Source: Gaeumannomyces sp. JS-464
Lineage: Eukaryota; Ascomycota; Sordariomycetes; Magnaporthales; Magnaporthaceae
DNA length: 64,000 bases
Assembly (NCBI GenBank): GCA_002197995.1
Contig: NGZR01000003.1
Location: 310,001-374,000 of the forward strand
Direction of reading: 5' to 3'
How positions within the stretch are numbered: the stretch's first letter is position 1; every line of letters begins with the position of its first letter. A program made the position numbers and the translations under genes. Positions 37,723 through 60,268 of this stretch are shown one piece after another. The notes under the pieces are model-generated. The model did not search any database and had not been told where the DNA came from. It worked only from the letters and a program-made list of their open reading frames with translations.

Positions 37723-38476
37723 ATGGCGTCAAGAGGAGCTCCGCGAGGACGCGGAGGAGGTGGCTTTGGCCGTGGAGGTACATGACGACACCCTCCCAGA
37801 CAAAAACCCCAACAGGCGACACGAACACACGAACGCACACACAATCCCAGACTAACACACTACTCTCATCCTCCCCCCAGGCGGCCGCGGCGGCTTCCAG
37901 CAGCGCGACTTCGGCCCGCCCGCCGCCGTCGTCGAGATGGGCAAGTTCCTGCACGCGTGCGAGGGCGAGATGGTGTGTGAGAGCGTCAACCCAAAGGTCC
38001 CGCACTTCAGCGCCCCGATATACCTCGAGAACAAGACGGCCGTCGGCAAGGTCGACGAGATCCTGGGGCCCCTGAACCAGGTCTACTTCACCGTCAAGCC
38101 CTCCGAGGGCATCCAGGCCGGCGCCTTCAAGCCCGGCGACCGCTTCTACATCGCCGCCGAGAAGCTGCTCCCGCTCGAGAGGTTCCTGCCCAAGCCCAAG
38201 CCGCCCCCCGGGACCGTGTCTAAGGTCAAGAAGCCCGCCGGCGGTCGGGGCGGTGGCCGCGGTGGTGGCATGAGGGGCGGCAGGGGCGCGCCCAGGGGTG
38301 GCGGCGGCCGCGGTGGCGGTTTCGGCCGTGGCGGAGGCGGAGGCGGCTTCTCGCGTGGCGGCGGCGGCGGCGGCGGCCGTGGTGGTGGTTTCAGCCGCGG
38401 CGGCGGTTCCGGCGGCTTCTCGAGGGGCGGCGGTGGCCGTGGAGGAGGCTTCAGCCGTGGCAGGGGCGGCAGGTAG
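37723..38476 (+). CDS. GAR1: H/ACA snoRNP subunit Gar1
   Basis: Gar1 is a core protein of H/ACA box snoRNPs that pseudouridylate rRNA; it binds the Cbf5 catalytic subunit in the nucleolus. The central Gar1 fold is clear ([19 protein letters not shown], then [38 protein letters not shown] and [19 protein letters not shown]). It is flanked by RGG/Gly-Arg-rich domains at both ends, a long one at the C-terminus with Phe/Ser/Arg/Gly repeats. Exons are 37723-37777 and 37881-38476. The GTACAT...CAG intron lies inside the N-terminal GAR domain, and splicing keeps the GGRGG reading. No frameshift. Length about 216 residues, normal for fungi. Confidence 0.96.
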
Positions 38477-49761: not shown

Positions 49762-51557
49762 CTAGGAAACCGGCGTCGACTCCGGTCCCCTGAGGTTCGC
49801 CGCCGACGCGGCCTGTCGCAACCTCGTCCCTCGCCGCGGTGGGGGTGCCTTTGGCGGTATCTTTTTCTGCGGCTGCGCGGCCCGCCGCTGTTGCCTACTG
49901 CATGACCATGGCCATTGCCGTTCACGGGCACCGGAGGCGACGATGACGGCGTCAGAAGTCTCCCGTGTCGGTGCTTCGGGACCTCGGGTCGGACCTTCTT
50001 TGGTTTCGCCGCAACCACAGCGGCGACCTCAACTGACAGGGGCGGCGCGTCGCCGTTGGTGCCCGGATTTCGTCCTTCAGGGCGTCAGCATCGGGCTGCT
50101 CGTCTTTGCGACTGGGCGTCTGGACGCCCGGCTTCTCCATAACGGCGGCCACGTCGACGACACTAACGCTACTCGCGGTTTGAGACTCGGAGAGGCTGAT
50201 GCCAAAGAGTTTGCGCGCCACCTCGCCCTCGGCGTACGCCTCCTGCCCGCTGAGCCACTTGACCTTGGATACGCGGTCGACCAGTCGCACCGTGGTCTCA
50301 TCTGCCGGCGCAAAGTGTGTATTATCCGCGCCCCCCAGAATCCAGAGCATCCTGTTGATCTCCTCACGCTTATAGTGAGGAGGGCGGCTCAACTGTGTGT
50401 GCGCCAGCAGTGGGTAAAGCACGCGAAGGTAGGTGTGTCGCAGCGAAGTCGACTCGTTCGGCAGATCCAGTAAGTTGCGGATTATGACGTCGAGCAGGAC
50501 ATGTAGGTCATTGGTGTAGAAGTACTCGTACGTGGCTTTAGTGGTGAACAGTAAGTAGAGTAGCTTCAGGATTAGGAGCTGCAGCGAGGTTTCAGTCTCG
50601 CGGTTGAGTAGGAGGATAATATTCTCCCCAAACGTCCTGAAATCCGGCCCCCTGAGGCTCAGGACCTTGATAATCCTATTTGTCAAGAGTGGCGCCGCCT
50701 CTGCGGAAGGGGGATCAACGGCGGCAGTGGTAGACGCCACCATGTATTGCTCGTTCAAAACCAACTGTGAGGAAGAAAAAAAAAAGTCAGCTTCCCAGGT
50801 CGGGTCATATATGATGAATTTCCTCGTGTTGTATCTCGGAAAAGACAAGCACATACCAACACTCGTATTACGGGATAATGATAAGGGGCGTCGACGTCGT
50901 CGGATAAACTCTCTATAACCTGCAACATATAAGTGACAAAGTCGTCTGTCACGAGGGCCAGGTCCTCGGGGCGGACGCGCTCGATGCGCGACATCTCGTA
51001 CACGAGCTCGAGCAGCAGGCGGTGCAGGCGGCGGTCGTTGTCGCGCGTGCCGTTGATGAGCCCGACGAGGCGCGGGAAGCAGCCCTCGTCGATCATGCGG
51101 CGGAACATGGCCTCGTCGGACCGGCGTGGCATAAAGTTTGCAATGGCGTGGATGGGCCCGGCCTCGTCCTCCTGCAGCAGGCTGTAGATGATCTGGGTGC
51201 GCACGTAGTCGCGGTTTTGGCAAAAGGTGCCGCTGTCGACGAGCAGCTGCGAGCAGCTGGCCCACGTCGTCCTCGGTGACCAGATACAGCTCGCGGCACG
51301 ACGCGACCAGGTACAGCCACGCGCGGAGGGCATCGTCAATGGACTCGTGCGAGCCGGCGCAGTCGCGGGAGAAGATGGCGGCGAGTTCTGCACTCGGGAG
51401 GGGCGCACGGTTAGCAAGGGTCCGCTGCACGTCGACGCAGCGCGAGCGCCAGCCGGCGGAGCCAATTGGGATTCCCTGACTGCCGACCTTTCCAGAACTG
51501 CTCCTCGGTTTCCACCGGCGGGGAGCCGTCGCCGGCCAGCGCCAGGTCGGTGGCCAT
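49762..51557 (-). CDS. LDB17: Ldb17/Dip1/SPIN90 family Arp2/3 regulator
   Basis: This cortical actin-patch protein of the WISH/DIP/SPIN90 family activates Arp2/3 to make seed filaments for endocytosis. The leucine-rich SPIN90 domain is clear: [20 protein letters not shown], then [76 protein letters not shown] and [20 protein letters not shown]. The C-terminus is Pro/Lys/Arg-rich ([15 protein letters not shown]), the usual SH3-binding tail. Introns: one after FWK, joined to ELAAIF (about 51379-51489), and one near 50768-50870. Shifts near 51245, 50000 and 49880 are needed; with them the protein ends at 49762. Confidence 0.88.
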
Positions 51558-52154
51558 TGTTTCACGATAGTGCCGGCGACGAGCAAGACGTTGGCATTCC
51601 GAGGTGGGGGACGGGGAACCGCGCCCGCGGGCTTGTTCGCTGGTGGCCGGGCTGCTTGACGACGAAGAGAGGGCAGGGCGGCTGTGTCGCTCGTTCAACC
51701 AAGAACCCCGAGGGAAACGGCGGCCAACCGTCGTTTCATCCCAAGTCTGCCCTGGATTGTCGAATTTGGTCAGTCGCGTTTTGGGGTTGGGGCTGGGTTG
51801 ACGGAGAAGGAAAGCCGGGGCGAGGGAGCTTGCCAGACCGACGGCTGTTTGGGCCTGGACCCAATGATCTGAACCATGATTCTGGGGCCCACATTGCTGT
51901 GGCGTCAGCGTCAGGCGGCTTCGGCTCAGCACACTTGTGGGGTCCGATACCCCACCATTATCCGAGCCGCAGCGAAGACGATGCCCTGGAGCGGTTAGCG
52001 GCTTCCATCCTGCGCGGGGTCGTTGGTTACCTAAAAGTGACGGCACGAATCGACTGATGGTTCATTAGCCAGAGGTAGTATTGGCGGAAAGAGATATCAT
52101 TCTTGGTCTTTTTACACTTCCTCCGCCCCCTTCCGGCTGTGTACACCAATATTT
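51558..52154. other. Intergenic region upstream of the Ldb17-like gene
   Basis: About 600 bp between the Ldb17-like start and the stop of the protease/pseudokinase gene, both on the minus strand. No coding feature was recognised. Confidence 0.5.
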
Positions 52155-55100
52155 CTAACTACCGCGACCAGCAATTTCCTGTGTGACAGCATCAAGGCGC
52201 GCAAGTAGGGCCGCCTGTTCGTCCTCGAGCTCCCGTGCTGTTTTGCCCATGAGGTCGCTATTTTGCGCGCCAGAACCCCCAGTGACCGATATCGGCTGAC
52301 GCGCCACTTTTTGGGCTGCCGAAGCCCCGAGTTTCATAACCGCCTTGCCCTTGGAAGCCTCACTGGCCGCTGTGTCCTCGGGCAAGGCGGAAGGCGATGT
52401 GGGCAATAGGCCATGATCTTCGGAACGCCTCGCCGAAGCCCAGGGTTTTCTCCTTGACGCGCCTCCCGATGATTGACTGATCACACTCTCACCGGCCAGA
52501 GTCTGAGGAGGTGTGGGTATGATGTAAGGAGAGAGCGGATCTCTCTTGAAAGCGGATTCGAAGACGCGGCCGGCCTCCTGGGTGACGTCGTCCCGCTGCG
52601 CGGCCGACAGGATCCGCTGGGCCGCCTCGAGGCGGCGCTCAAAGTCTTCCTTCAGGCGCTCACCGTGGAGCGGGTCCCAATTAGGGTCGAAGTGCGCATG
52701 GATAGATGGTACATCGTAGAGCTGTGAAGAGCGAGTCCTAGTTTCCAGCCAGGCCGCTCCTATACCTTCAAGAACCCTGTTATTAAAGTCCCCATCAATC
52801 CCCTCAAAAAATCTCTGCGTAGAACAGTTCTGAAGAAAAGTTAACACCGCAGCGGCCAAGCTACGCTGATCCGGGTCGACGATCAGCATGCTGTCTTCGG
52901 TGTACTGAAGGATGCCCGCCAAGTCCTTCGTACAGCCCGGCTGGCTTCGGAGTCGCTTGGCCAACTAATTTATCCGCTGCAAGGTTAGTAGTGCAGGAGA
53001 GAGAGAGAGAGAGAGAGAGAGAAAACTAACGTGTGTGACCGCCGGCTTGAGCTTGGCAGCAAACCCCCCACCAGGTAGTCGAGACAAGACAAAGAACTTG
53101 TCGTCGGGAGACGTATCATCGGCCTCGCGAGCTCTGGTAAACTCCTTGACGGCCTCGTACCCCAACAGGAACCATGTGATAAACTCGAGGTAGACGCAGC
53201 CCAGAGCCCAGATGTCTGACGCGCGAGAAATCGAGAACTTGATCCCAAAATCGGGTGCCGAGTACGGTGTCGACCAGCTAGCCACCGCCTGTTTTGGCCG
53301 CTGCAGTGTTGTCGCCCCGATGTCGAAAATCTTGAGGTCGAACCCGGTTACCCCGTCATCTGGCTTTCCCTTACGGAAACAAAAGATGTTCTCGGGCCTT
53401 ATCTTGCCATGTCGTCCATACACCACTTCCTTTACTGCAACAGCATATCCCGGCTCGGCACCCGGCTCGGCGGGGATCCGTAGTTCCTCGGAAAATTCGG
53501 ACCTTCTCGATCGCGCTTCGGCATGGATCTCGGCAATCCCCGCTGCCAGGTTTAAGCACTGTTGGTACATCCACCGATGCAGTTTCGGGGTGGCTGCTTG
53601 CGGCATAGGGTTTGCAGACCACAAGTCAGTAAGGCTGCCCCTGTCGGCCCATGGGAGTACCAGATAGTAGCCACCCTGGAAGGTGAATGCAGCAAGCGGC
53701 CGGGCCGGGCGTATGTAGGTCAGAGGCATGTCGTATGGTTCGATTTCCTTGTCGAAGTGACCCTCCCTCGGGTTCAGGACCTTGATCGCAAACTCGTTCG
53801 TCCCCTAGTGTAATATACATCAGTTACGGTCCGGGTCTTGACTCGACTGCTTTTGGATCGATATGAAGAGGCTTTACAGTAATTTTGTCCATGTTGTGAT
53901 GCGACGGGTGGACTAGAGCCTTGTAGACGCTAGAGAAGCCTTCCCTCCCCGGGATAGGATCGTAGTTCGTGAAAGGCAAGATAGTGCGTTCGTGGAAGTG
54001 GACGTAGTGCACGGCCATGCCATCGTCGGCCACTTCAATGTATGGCGCGAGCATATGCCACTGACAATCGTCAAACTGCCGGATCTCGGTCAACCTCCAG
54101 TCGTCAAGCGGTCCCGTGTTGATGGTGTCGATGGTGTCGATGCCGCACTGGGAATTCCCCAAGTCGCTATTTCGGACGAGGCGGAATTTTGAGCCATTTT
54201 CATTGCTCCGTCTCAAAGGCAGGTCATCATCGAGGACTCGTTCTCGATAAAAGTCGACGATGCGCTCGGGCTTGCTTATGAGGATGAGGATGGCGAAGAT
54301 CTTTTTCCCATCGCCGCATGCGTAAACCGTGAGCTCCTCGAGATTCCCTACGTGCGGTAGTAGTTGTTGCAGGCAATATCGTACGCCTGGTTTCGTGCTT
54401 GAGCTAAGGATTTTATTGAGCTCGCCACGTGGGAAAAAGTATTTCGTTTTGTCCATAGGCGACGGGATGAGAGCTCTGGTGAGCTGATCCTTGATCTGAT
54501 CGATAGCCGGCCATTGGAAGTTGATCGTCGCAGACGGCGTGCCGAGAGCCGAGTTGGGGGGTAGTGAAACCTGTTGCAGTTAGAGGAGTAGTCTTGCCTG
54601 GGATTGGAATTCCCTCACCTCAAATTTATTACCAAGTCTGGGTCGAAGGTACCTAGTTAGCAAACGTATTGCCAACAACAGTGAAGAGGCATTAATAATG
54701 CTAGAGTCCACACACGTCTTTTCGATATCAGATACAAGCTTCTCAGCCGTTATCATGTAGGCGAACGGTTCATCTTCATAGATCAGGGCAATCATGCCAC
54801 AGAGTTTCTCGCCCTGGACTACCCAGCAGCCAGAGACTCCCAAGCCTAGATCAAGATTAGTAGGAGCACCTCGGACACACTTGGTTGGGTACAGAGACTG
54901 GGAACTACTTACTAAGGGGCCGCTCGAGCTGGATCTTTCTAGTCGGGAACAGTCTCCCCCGCAGGAACAGCCTTGGCCGTTCAGACAGCAACACTCCCGA
55001 CACCACTTCGTTCGGGCCGAGAATGATGTGCAACTCTCCTTCGTGCATATCTTTCTCAAGCAGTAGGCTTTCAACGTGCTTCACCGGCCCAGTGCCCATA

Positions 55101-56284
55101 TCGAAAGTGTTCATGACTTCCTTGGGTAACTCCAGGAGGGCAAAATCAGCACTAGAAGCTAGCGTTTCCGGCTGGGATATCGGGAAAGGGGGCCGGAAAG
55201 CTTCAATAGTCTCCCAGCCGCCACCAAGCCAGTTGAGTGAGTAGATACCCCGTACGGGGTCCCATTCTCCCTGCTGAATCCGTTCTATGCCGATGAATCC
55301 TTTTGGTGGCGTAGTGGAGGATGCCCTGGGTGAAGATGCTTGTGTCGATGGTGCATTGATAGAGGGGGCACGGATGGACGGTGCGTTGGAGCTGCGACTT
55401 GAGCTTGCCGTACCGCCGTGTCGATCTTGATGGTGAAGTAGTGAGCGTGCTCTTCCAGTCCCCCGATGTGACTGTGAGTCCGAGCCCTCCATGTTGGTAG
55501 CCAGGAACTCGTCGAGCAAGGCATGGCCTGAGGTTACGCCGACCAGCTTCACCGCGCCGCTAGCCTCTCTAATCGAGAGGATGCCCCCTATTCGAGAGCA
55601 TCCATTGTACACTATCACATCTCCTCGCTTTATCGTGACAAAGCAAATAAGGCCACAGCCAGATGGCCGTAGATCGCTAGCCGCGGTAGGGCGCTCCACG
55701 TGCAGAACCAAGGTGAGGTCTTTAGGCAAGGCGAAGCCACGAGAGTCGAATGGCAGACCAGGGGGTACCGGGAAGTTTGGATCAGAGGCTGGGACAGCGG
55801 CACGCAGACCGACGCGGATCTTGTCGCCTAGGCCGTAGGCGCGGGTCCAGGTCATGCCGCCAACCTCTCTTTTGGCCAATCCTTCGACCCAGCTGCTCCC
55901 GCAGCGAAACCAGATGTTAGGTGAGAGCGACAGGTGGCAGCTGGAAGATGTCGAGCCCCGGCCCGTCAGGATCAGCTCGGGCATCAAAGCAGAGTCTCTG
56001 GTGGGGATCTTGCGCGACTGGCATTCGTATTCGATGTTGTTATTGATATTCTGGGTATGTGAGCCTAGATTTTCGATCATGACGGCGTTCCATAGGTTTT
56101 CGATGGCTTGCTCGCGCGTCGCCGGTCGCGGGATGCGGTCAAGGCGGGCGACATAGAGAACTTCCTTGCTCGGATTGAAGACTTTGATCAGCCCCTTGGC
56201 AGTTGTTCGCTGCTTGACCTTCACCACATTGGCCTCTCGTTCAGATGCCTGAACGATGACGGCGCAAGTCGAGGTCGGATTCAT
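52155..56284 (-). CDS. Serine-protease-like and pseudokinase multidomain protein
   Basis: Five exons (56284-54913, 54845-54619, 54570-53828, 53804-53031, 52964-52155) encode about 1,308 residues. After an N-terminal region of unknown kind, residues about 205-520 look like a fungal trypsin-like fold: His254 in GVTSGHAL, Asp380 in SSADFALLEL, Ser462 in GVSGCWVV. A Ser/Pro/Ala-rich insert lies between His and Asp. GDSG is changed to GVSG. From about residue 740 a kinase fold follows: PGREGFSSVYKA glycine loop, FAIKVL lysine, HGKIRPEN catalytic loop, DIG for DFG, and SRASDIWALGCVYLEF. The HRD Asp is Lys, so phosphotransfer is doubtful. The tail has a short coiled coil (ELEDEQAALLARLDAV). Exon 1-2-3 junctions are exact; the exon 3-4 junction is off by one base. 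An upstream in-frame ATG at 56377 is possible. Function unknown; the layout suggests sensing or signalling. Confidence 0.75.
52998..53022 (+). repeat. (GA)n microsatellite within an intron
   Basis: About 12 GA units lie in the last intron (52965-53030) of the protease/pseudokinase gene. Read on the coding strand it is a (CT)n tract shortly after the GTTAGT donor. Confidence 0.9.
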
Positions 56285-56613: not shown

Positions 56614-57708
56614 ATGACAACGATGGGCTCTATTCGAAAGATATGGCCGCAAGTCCCGGATACAGCCGGGGCGGTGGCACCAGAATACGTGCGTCTCCTT
56701 GAATATTTCACCACATCCTGCGATAAAGCCGGGTTGTTCTCCCAGAACACCGCATTTGCAACAGTTGACTTGGCCGACACGCTGGATATGGTGTCGCGAA
56801 TTCGAGGGCTAGCTACCGCAACTACCCCCTTGGGTCAGATGACCAGAAACGAGCTCCTTAATGGCATGAGGAGAAACCCCAGCCCAACCTGGAGGTCCAC
56901 GCGAGATCCCCACATCGTCAACTCTTTATGTCTGGCCCTCAGCCTCTGGCTCGCTCTGGAAATTACTCCGTCAAGGACCACCCCTGGCTACTTCCCCAGC
57001 TACAAGCTCGAGTGGGATGACACCACGACTTTGTCGGACCTGATCACCCATGCCATCCCGGCTGGAACATTAGCGAACCCCGGCCCCCGTCAGCAATTAG
57101 ACCCAAGACTCACCTTGGAATATCTCAAATCCTACCATGGCTTCAAGATCGCCTTCACGGACAACCTCGCAAAGCACCTCTTCCTCCAGACTGGGGGAGG
57201 CTCACGGCCACTTCTCTTTGTATTCAGCCACAAGATATTTCTTCGCAACAAGATCGCGTACCCCCAAACCTCCCCTCTTCCACCCGGTATGGTCAGGGAA
57301 GCCCTGGACACGCTGAACCTCCTGCTCCCCCACGAAGACTCGGACACTCAAAAGTTCCTCAACAAGCGCGGCAAGGCCGACATATACGGTTTGGGATGGG
57401 GCGGGCGTCCTGCTGAACGAAACCTCGACTTGAGCAATTACACACACTGGCGGGACAGGCTTGAGAGGCTATCCAACACCGTGGCCGCGGGACCTACCGG
57501 CCTTAGGCAGTTTAAGCTGGGACGAGGGCCGGGAGCCGCCCGCGACTTCGCCAGCTGTTACTTGGCGGCCGTGACCGTCATCATTCTCACGGTAGTGTCG
57601 GTTGGACTAAGCGTGGCTTCGGTGGCGATCGGCATGTTGCAGTACAAGCTCGCGCTTGCCCAGGCGTGTGCCACGCTGAACTCTACCCAGCTGCCAGGCT
57701 GGTGTTGA
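56614..57708 (+). CDS. Fungal-specific protein with C-terminal membrane anchor
   Basis: An intact, intronless 364-residue frame. The first about 315 residues are soluble, with motifs KSYHGFKIAFTDNLAKHLFL and LFVFSHKIFLRN, a region GMVREALDTLNLLLPHEDSD and YTHWRDRLERL. A single strong transmembrane helix follows (CYLAAVTVIILTVVSVGLSV to IGMLQYKLALAQAC) with only about 15 residues after it. This layout (TDNLAxHL motif, HWRDRL motif, C-terminal hydrophobic segment) recalls a large uncharacterised family of Sordariomycete proteins, from memory only. It is head-to-head with the protease/pseudokinase gene. No enzymatic motif was seen. Possible roles include a membrane effector or target of its neighbour; this is speculative. 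Confidence 0.75.
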   Translation: MTTMGSIRKIWPQVPDTAGAVAPEYVRLLEYFTTSCDKAGLFSQNTAFATVDLADTLDMVSRIRGLATATTPLGQMTRNELLNGMRRNPSPTWRSTRDPHIVNSLCLALSLWLALEITPSRTTPGYFPSYKLEWDDTTTLSDLITHAIPAGTLANPGPRQQLDPRLTLEYLKSYHGFKIAFTDNLAKHLFLQTGGGSRPLLFVFSHKIFLRNKIAYPQTSPLPPGMVREALDTLNLLLPHEDSDTQKFLNKRGKADIYGLGWGGRPAERNLDLSNYTHWRDRLERLSNTVAAGPTGLRQFKLGRGPGAARDFASCYLAAVTVIILTVVSVGLSVASVAIGMLQYKLALAQACATLNSTQLPGWC

Positions 57709-58380: not shown

Positions 58381-60268
58381 CTAGTCGTCGTACACCTTTA
58401 CCTTTTCGGCGTACTCTTTGATGTTACTGACGACATTCTCAGTAATGGTGTCGCCCTTGCCCGCGGCGACGCGCAGGATGAGCTCGTTCAGCATCTGCCG
58501 CCCAGGATGTCGACGTGGTCCGCCGTGTGCGGCCGCCCCTGGGGTTGAAGCGTTCGGGCTCGTGCGGCATCTCGACGACCGTGACCTTGACGCCCGCCGG
58601 GTTGTAGCGCTTGTACTTCCACCCGCGGTTGCACATGTACCCCGAGCTCAGCAGGTTGACGGTGCCGTCCCCTCGCCAGGATGACGCCGTGGTCGATGTC
58701 GCCCTGCGTCAGGCCCGTGTCGATGGTGACGTTGAGATTCGTCAGCGACGGGAACTCGGGCGACCGGTAGTAGTACGCCCGCTCCGTCGGCTTGCCCACG
58801 CCGTAGAAGCAGTACACCTTCAAGTTCGGCGCCAGGGGCAGTCGTGTTTCCAGCGGGTTGATCCACTTGGTCGGATCGTCCTCGTTGGCTTCTACTCCTC
58901 CTTCGTGTGCGCGACCCGTGCGAGTAGCTGCCTTGACCGCCGCACGTACCAGTCCTCTGTCGTGTCGAAAAGGTATTTCATGGCGTTGTCGACCGTCAGG
59001 TTACTCTCCGGCGTCGGCGTGGTCCAATTCTGGCCCTGTCGGAAGTGAAAGCACCTGCCCAAACGTATTTTCCTGGCCGGGCAGATCGTCGGGCGCCCAG
59101 GTCGAATTGCCCCAGACGGCGTCGCCGCCGAGCGGGAGCATGGAGGACAGGCCAGGCATGGCGCGGAAGATCTCGGCTCGCTCCTCCTTGCTAAGGAACT
59201 TCTCGAGCCCGTACACGGCAAACGCATTCAGCTGGGCCGTGTCGCGCATCTCGCCCGACAGCACGGCAGCCAGGTCCTTGATGGCGCCCAGCATGCAGCC
59301 GCTTACGTTGATCCAGGACTCGACGTGACGGTCTACCCAGTCGTCGCCGCCCCGGCCGCCCTTCTGCGAGGCGACCCAGTGGAAGAAGTAGAAGATGACC
59401 TGGCTGCCCATGCTGTGGGACACAAGCACGGCCTTGCGGCCCGACGCCTGCACTGACGTCTCGATGTACATCATGAGGCGCGTAAAGTACTGGTCGCGGG
59501 TCTCGAGGTTCGGGTACGACAACCGCCAGTCATAGGCAGCAGTAAACGAGTTGGTAGGGTCGTAGCCTAGCGATGCAAGGTTCTCAAGGATCTTGCTCCA
59601 GATCCAGTAGCCCGTTATGAAGAAGTCGGTGGCGTCGAAGCCTTGGGCGGCGCGCAGCTTGATGTTGGGCGGGTCCAGGCCCGTCTGTTTGTCGAGCATG
59701 ATGTGCTTCTTCCACATCTCCTTGTCCAGGACGAGAGCCCTCATCATAGTCCAGCTGCCCCACAGGCGCTTGCGGAAGTAGGGGCGCGATGTGTTTGCGG
59801 TGCCCCAGGACTCGAGGCCGGTCGAGATGACACCAGGCACCATGACTATTGGGTGATGCGCCTCGAGGCCGTCGAGCCTGGCTTTGGTGCCGACCGAGAA
59901 GGACTCGTAGCTATCGACGAATTCTCGTTCGCCTCTTACCAGATCCTTCATGTCCCTAACAAGGCCGGCGGGAAGGACGTCCAGCAGGTTGTCGACACTC
60001 AAGTCTCCAATCTCGGGGAAGTCTATCAGGTCGTTTGTCTTGGCGAAAAAGCCGGCTGCGATGATGCCTGACAAACTGCCCAGCAGGAAGATAAAGGTGT
60101 TGCGGCGCTTGCGCGTGCGCGGCTTGACGTGCACTACTGTCTTGACGAGCTGGTCCTTTGCGGACCGTGGCGCCGCCGGGCTCGCATCTCTGGGGTATCA
60201 GTAGGGGTCGGAGACGGAGACGGCGTCTCTTCTGGCCTGAGGGCTCGTCGGCGGAGGGTGGTGGCCAT
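58381..60268 (-). CDS. LRO1: Phospholipid:diacylglycerol acyltransferase (PDAT)
   Basis: This ER-membrane LCAT-family enzyme makes triacylglycerol by moving an acyl chain from phospholipid to diacylglycerol. A cytosolic basic N-terminus (TRKRR) precedes one membrane anchor (FIFLLGSLSGIIAAGFF). The lumenal domain shows HHPIVMVPGVISTGLESWG, RLWGSWTMM, YDWRLSYPN, the nucleophile elbow SHSMGSQ, and C-terminal GVILARGDGTVNL-type sequence with the HVDILG histidine region. It ends KEYAEKVKVYDD at 58383. The start at 60268 (MATTLRRRALRPEETPSP) needs one shift near 60185 to join the anchor; otherwise translation would start at 60134. Further shifts lie near 58900, 58675, 58540 and 58505. No intron is needed. 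Ser, Asp and His of the triad can all be placed. Confidence 0.93.

What the first reader, a model, noticed from the sequence alone, without database searches (positions are those of the whole stretch)
52155..56284. Protease-like domain fused to a pseudokinase in one fungal gene
Five exons with good splice junctions give one about 1,308-residue protein. It combines a trypsin-like fold with a plausible His254/Asp380/Ser462 triad and a degenerate kinase fold. The combination is unusual and suggests a sensor-protease in which the kinase fold regulates or recognises partners. I do not know this fusion as a described system.
Basis: partly seen in the sequence, partly recalled or inferred. Interest (0 to 1): 0.75.

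Follow-up and report, generated by a model that had tools for sequence, protein, structure and literature searches.

The report
Fungal protease-kinase with membrane-protein partner
This fungal gene makes one protein that joins a chymotrypsin-like protease to a worn-out kinase, and in several related fungi it sits beside the same uncharacterised membrane protein, which suggests a two-gene signalling switch whose trigger and target are not yet known.

Summary

A 364-residue protein with a C-terminal membrane helix is transcribed divergently, 329 bases away. Its homologues carry the locus tag next to the protease-kinase in three of the five named fungi, in two orders. Its confident predicted fold has no PDB match.

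Precedent exists. Aspergillus SltB is a pseudokinase plus chymotrypsin-like signalling protease, with the domains in the opposite order. Fungal gasdermin clusters pair proteases, some fused to kinase-like domains, with membrane executioners. Best reading: a new variant of fungal signalling protease, kinase-controlled and working with the membrane partner. Cleavage of the partner is inferred, not shown.

The parts
54913..56284 (-). Exon 1: N-terminal domain (residues 1-205), then the protease with His254 and Asp380, up to residue 457
   Evidence: relative P0001 matches at 74% identity
54846..54912 (-). Intron 1 (GTAAGT...TCTAG)
54716..54845 (-). Exon 2: carries LGVSG with catalytic Ser462 and the C-terminal protease strands and helix
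   Evidence: (74% identity to P0026 over 46 residues)
54638..54715 (-).
   Evidence: P0001, P0002 and P0003 lack the 26 residues it would encode
54619..54637 (-). Exon 3, 19-base microexon (LGNKFE; relatives LGDKVE/LGDKSK)
54571..54618 (-). Intron 3
53878..54570 (-). Exon 4: linker, pre-kinase region, start of kinase lobe
   Evidence: 60% identity to P0001
53805..53877 (-). Intron 4
53031..53804 (-). Exon 5: kinase-like domain (beta3 Lys746 kept, HRD-Asp replaced by Lys872, DFG reads DIG at 899-901)
52965..53030 (-). Intron 5, with a CT run; acceptor TTAG, 12 bases past a CAG that would give an early stop
52155..52964 (-). Exon 6: end of kinase lobe, variable tail, C-terminal segment, stop
54625..55669 (-). 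Chymotrypsin-fold protease domain, residues 206-505 (includes introns 1 and 2)
   Evidence: predicted fold of relative P0026; triad:
52818..53991 (-). Kinase-like domain, residues about 701-1045 (includes introns 4 and 5)
   Evidence: Pfam PF00069, 24.9 bits, below the cut-off of 31.7; relative P0003 69.1 bits
56285..56613 (.). 329-base shared upstream region between the divergent pair
   Evidence: sequence
56614..57705 (+). Partner gene: 364-residue single-exon protein, alpha-rich domain plus C-terminal membrane helix; stop codon 57706-57708
57562..57618 (+). Hydrophobic segment of the partner, residues 317-335 (Kyte-Doolittle 2.51)
   Evidence: long helix 305-353 in the model

Best explanation
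The gene encodes an intracellular signalling protease. A conserved N-terminal domain (1-205, possibly a prodomain) precedes a chymotrypsin-fold serine protease, and a kinase-family domain at the C-terminal end most likely works as the input or restraint. On a signal, the kinase domain (motifs intact in three of five full-length relatives, degenerate and so only conformational here) releases the protease. The protease then cuts its genetically linked partner, a membrane protein anchored by its C-terminal helix, either freeing its cytosolic domain or activating it at the membrane. Shown: gene structure, conserved fusion, conserved triad, predicted protease fold, loss of kinase motifs in some members, and recurrent gene pairing. 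Inferred: protease activity, regulation by the kinase domain, and cleavage of the partner.
Against: No direct evidence of proteolysis, expression or interaction. AF2 confidence for the protease is modest (mean pLDDT 64, pTM 0.58), the Foldseek TM-scores over the query are low (at most 0.28 in the 50 rows shown), and it is a model of a relative at 41-43% identity. No curated protease family matches by sequence, nor any solved protease among the matches shown. Adjacency may reflect shared regulation rather than enzyme and substrate.
Confidence: 0.5

Rival explanations
1. SltB/Ssy5-like pathway: the protease processes itself and then a latent transcription factor encoded elsewhere. The neighbouring membrane protein is only the sensor or a co-regulated bystander.
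For: SltB is reported to cut itself, releasing its pseudokinase domain, and then SltA (PMC11011638). Ssy5 cuts Stp1 after its prodomain is phosphorylated and degraded (PMC12958826). The N-terminal domain here could be such a prodomain. No membrane segment in 6 of the 7 protease-family proteins scanned.
Against: Domain order is opposite to SltB. PF08192 (Ssy5 family) gives no match in the window protein or six relatives. It does not explain why the membrane partner stays adjacent in two orders.
Confidence: 0.25
2. A pyroptosis-like two-gene defence or allorecognition cluster: the protease-kinase is the sensor and the membrane protein a cell-death executioner, functionally like HET-Q2/HET-Q1 but with unrelated parts.
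For: Reviews report two-gene clusters of protease sensor plus membrane-acting executioner in fungi, and protease domains fused to kinase-like domains (PMC12881547; PMC10197012). The kinase domain differs more between species than the protease.
Against: Predicted protease fold is chymotrypsin-like, not S8 or CHAT. The partner model is alpha-rich, with no match in the PDB. Single copy in this genome. No toxicity or polymorphism data.
Confidence: 0.2
3. A pseudoenzyme scaffold: neither domain is catalytic in this species, and the protein only binds partners.
For: Kinase clearly degenerate. Fold confidence of the protease model is modest. No protease family match by sequence.
Against: Triad and GxSG conserved wherever the exons are present, in named fungi of four orders. 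The protease domain is the best-conserved part between the window protein and P0001.
Confidence: 0.1
4. Gene-model artefact: two neighbouring genes joined by mistake.
For: No RNA-seq. P0026 (Plectosphaerella) is annotated as a 481-residue protease alone.
Against: Five full-length records carry the fusion, two of them from other orders. P0026 ends exactly at the residue where this gene has a splice donor before the 19-base microexon, so its short form may be an annotation cut.
Confidence: 0.04

Closest known systems
SltB, Aspergillus nidulans (AN6132), signalling protease of the Slt cation/alkaline pathway
   Same: Pezizomycotina protein of 1,272 residues joining a pseudokinase to a chymotrypsin-like serine protease; signalling role (PMC4557415 and PMC11011638, passages read)
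   Different: Pseudokinase is N-terminal and protease C-terminal there, the reverse here. There the kinase lacks VAIK, HRD and DFG; in this family three of six members keep them.
Ssy5, Saccharomyces cerevisiae (Pfam PF08192, Peptidase_S64)
   Same: Intracellular chymotrypsin-like protease with an N-terminal prodomain; H-D-S order; released after phosphorylation of the prodomain (PMC12958826, passages read)
   Different: Controlled by separate kinases rather than one in the same chain; no PF08192 match here
Fungal gasdermin/protease two-gene clusters (HET-Q1/HET-Q2 type)
   Same: Protease sensor, sometimes fused to kinase-like domains, beside a membrane-acting protein (PMC12881547, PMC10197012, passages read)
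   Different: Proteases named there are S8 or CHAT. The partner here is alpha-rich with a C-terminal membrane helix and no PDB match.
HtrA/Deg and alpha-lytic-type chymotrypsin-fold proteases
   Different: 10-19% identity in those structural alignments; different domain context

Membership tests
Chymotrypsin-fold serine protease (clan PA) | Double beta-barrel fold | tested here: met
Chymotrypsin-fold serine protease (clan PA) | His-Asp-Ser in that order, with GxSG | tested here: met
   His/Asp 15 of 15; Ser in 6 of 6 rows reaching it plus the spliced window protein
Chymotrypsin-fold serine protease (clan PA) | Match to a trypsin-family sequence model | tested here: not met
   No Pfam protease hit; no NCBIfam protease hit for P0003, P0026, P0028
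Chymotrypsin-fold serine protease (clan PA) | Catalytic activity | not testable with these tools
   Needs purified protein
Peptidase S64 (Ssy5) | PF08192 above cut-off | tested here: not met
   No match at E<=1 for the window protein or 6 relatives; own-genome search empty, but its controls did not ring either
SltB | Pseudokinase N-terminal to the protease | tested here: not met
   Order is protease then kinase, against PMC4557415
SltB | Sequence orthology to SltB | not tested
Protein kinase superfamily | Kinase domain by PF00069 | tested here: inconclusive
   Window 24.9 bits, below cut-off 31.7; P0001 30.6 and P0002 26.6 also below, P0003 69.1, P0025 66.6, P0028 88.1 above
Pseudokinase | Loss of catalytic motif residues | tested here: met
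   HRD-Asp is Lys872, DFG is DIG, APE is APD; beta3 Lys and alphaC Glu kept
Fungal gasdermin/protease cluster | Protease gene next to a membrane-protein gene | tested here: met
   Divergent pair here; adjacent tags in 3 of 5 named protease records; membrane action of the partner not shown
Fungal gasdermin/protease cluster | Partner has gasdermin fold | tested here: inconclusive
Fungal gasdermin/protease cluster | Protease of S8 or CHAT type | tested here: not met
   Predicted chymotrypsin fold; no S8 or CHAT Pfam hit

The most novel reading that the evidence does not exclude
A previously undescribed two-gene signalling or cell-death module of Sordariomycetes: a protease-kinase sensor encoded beside (here head to head with) a membrane-anchored protein of new fold. 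The protease cuts the partner to fire the output, and in one group the kinase has turned into a non-catalytic regulator while the protease stayed under constraint.
Probability: 0.35. Interest if true: 0.75.

Novelty: new variant of a known kind. Interest (0 to 1): 0.55.

Why it matters
Fungi have few characterised intracellular signalling proteases (general knowledge). This would be a second, differently arranged kinase-protease design next to SltB, with a candidate substrate or executioner encoded beside it. That makes the question 'what does the protease cut?' directly testable. The family also seems to catch a kinase changing into a pseudokinase inside one family of fungi while its attached protease stays conserved, which is a useful natural experiment on regulatory pseudokinases.

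Tried and rejected
Tried, little gained:
- The Peptidase_S64 family in the own genome: empty, and its controls did not ring, so uninformative.
- Bacterial or viral relatives: none confirmed in genome contigs for the protease or in viral contigs for the partner.
- PHROGs: two weak hits of unknown function for P0026 (E 0.044 and 0.048), none for the partner. PADLOC and NCBIfam hits (MAD6, PD-T4-6, PknB and others) fall only on the kinase domain of P0003 and P0028 and reflect general kinase similarity.
- PDB by sequence profile A5: the 60 of 206 matches that were shown are all p38-type kinases at E 0.03-0.04, matching the kinase columns. A6: none. P0026 alone: none.
- Fold of the partner: no PDB match. 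No gasdermin appeared among the matches; this does not exclude one.
- Promoter scan of the intergenic region uses a bacterial consensus and says nothing about a fungus.

Considered and rejected: metagenome 'stand-alone' proteases P0024, P0027 and P0029-P0034 as evidence of an unfused ancestor. Each ends or leaves the family sequence shortly before the catalytic Ser, near where this gene has intron 1, so they look like exon-1 frames. Use of the field 'longest contig = 4,648' as proof of linkage: rejected, because the four proteins carrying it need more bases than that.

Paper searches for this fusion: searches listed the SltB paper; (12 of 15 papers listed) showed no title that I recognised as describing such a fusion. 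These are listings only, of open-licence papers only. The primary paper on gasdermin proteases was not held. Passages of PMC9815663 and PMC4986451 on fungal NLR domains were seen; the latter's domain table names S8 peptidase and protein kinase, and the search for trypsin there found only a reference about an inhibitor.

Full report
What is in the window. The finding lies in a fungal genome of 53.0 Mb in 34 contigs (G000, window = C23:310001-374000). The closest named relatives of the gene are Magnaporthiopsis poae and Gaeumannomyces hyphopodioides. The latter is in Magnaporthaceae; the family of the former is recalled. The flanking genes look ordinary: a SPIN90/Ldb17 gene on one side and an LCAT-family gene and a GNAT acetyltransferase on the other.

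Gene model. On the minus strand, six exons (56284-54913, 54845-54716, 54637-54619, 54570-53878, 53804-53031, 52964-52155) give 1,265 residues with one terminal stop. My first five-exon splice gave 1,291. Comparison with P0001 (M. poae MAPG_03592), P0002 (unnamed) and P0003 (G. hyphopodioides RB595_007046) showed a 26-residue insertion that is really a 78-base in-frame intron with GT-AG ends, leaving a 19-base microexon. The last acceptor is TTAG. The CAG before it would give an early stop, while the TTAG choice aligns without a gap to P0001, P0002, P0003 and P0028; P0025 lacks that stretch. Identity across the fusion is 64, 57 and 54% to P0001, P0002 and P0003, so the fusion is not an accident of gene calling. 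In this genome the protease part matches only this locus; other matches of P0001 are to its kinase or pre-kinase part.

Kinase. In the window PF00069 scores 24.9 bits, below its cut-off of 31.7. The catalytic HRD Asp is Lys872, DFG reads DIG, and APE reads APD, while the beta3 Lys and alphaC Glu remain. P0001 has DME in place of DFG. P0002 has DVK and a beta3 Glu. In contrast P0003, P0025 (Fusarium lateritium) and P0028 (Pestalotiopsis fici) keep these motifs and score 69.1, 66.6 and 88.1 bits. In the kinase tree the three degenerate domains group together with P0003 outside (100/99). The protease trees do not settle that order: the six-row tree puts the window protein, not P0003, outside the other three (85/87, drawn open), and the 15-row exon-1 tree puts P0003 outside (89/91, also open). 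So decay once, in a common ancestor, is likely but not established. Window against P0001, the protease is 77% identical and the kinase 46%. Against P0025 the degenerate kinases are 40, 36 and 36% identical and P0003 is 46%, while their proteases are 47, 42 and 45% against 41%. Against P0028, however, the kinases do not differ (30, 30 and 29% against 30%). Faster kinase change in the degenerate lineages is thus only hinted at, and I did not test it statistically.

What it most likely does. Anatomy and precedents suggest that the kinase domain controls the protease and that the protease is the conserved output. In yeast Ssy5 the prodomain is phosphorylated and degraded to free the protease (PMC12958826, passages). 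In Aspergillus SltB the protease is reported to free itself from a pseudokinase domain and then to cut SltA (PMC11011638, passages). Here the partner encoded beside it is the obvious candidate substrate or docking site, at a membrane. That last step is inference.

Known or new. Reviews describe fungal two-gene clusters of a protease sensor and a membrane executioner, with protease domains fused to kinase-like domains (PMC12881547, passages; PMC10197012, passages). SltB is the published kinase-protease chain that I found (PMC4557415, passages). The present family differs from SltB in domain order, and from the gasdermin clusters in predicted protease fold and in a partner with no recognised fold. 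I therefore call it a new variant of a known kind. The open part, and the interesting one, is the partner.

Limits. No RNA, no activity, no SltB sequence for direct comparison, a structure of a relative rather than of the window protein, shallow alignments (15 and 20 rows), and protein searches capped at three, each scoring only the 8,000 or so candidates that share most words.

Noticed in passing
54715-54638: A 78-base intron that is in frame and stop-free, followed by a 19-base microexon; easy to read through by eye or by gene finders, and possibly the reason why the Plectosphaerella record P0026 stops there.
   Followed up: yes
53030-52965: Intron 5 carries a perfect CT dinucleotide run (13 copies, GA on the plus strand 52997-53022) and uses TTAG instead of the nearer CAG, which would give an early stop.
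   Followed up: partly
G000 C1 and C23 (L012, L014-L020): Eight other kinase-like places in this genome match the kinase part of P0001 at 26-36% identity; only that part matched, and their domain layouts were not examined.
   Followed up: no
58488-60197: LCAT-family acyltransferase gene beyond the partner; probably the fungal LRO1/PDAT gene (name recalled).
   Followed up: no
49952-51694: SPIN90/Ldb17 leucine-rich domain gene on the 3' side, same strand, so the pair sits between ordinary genes.
   Followed up: partly
38298-38437: GGC-rich tandem array (69-base unit, 82% match), possibly a glycine-rich coding repeat.
   Followed up: no
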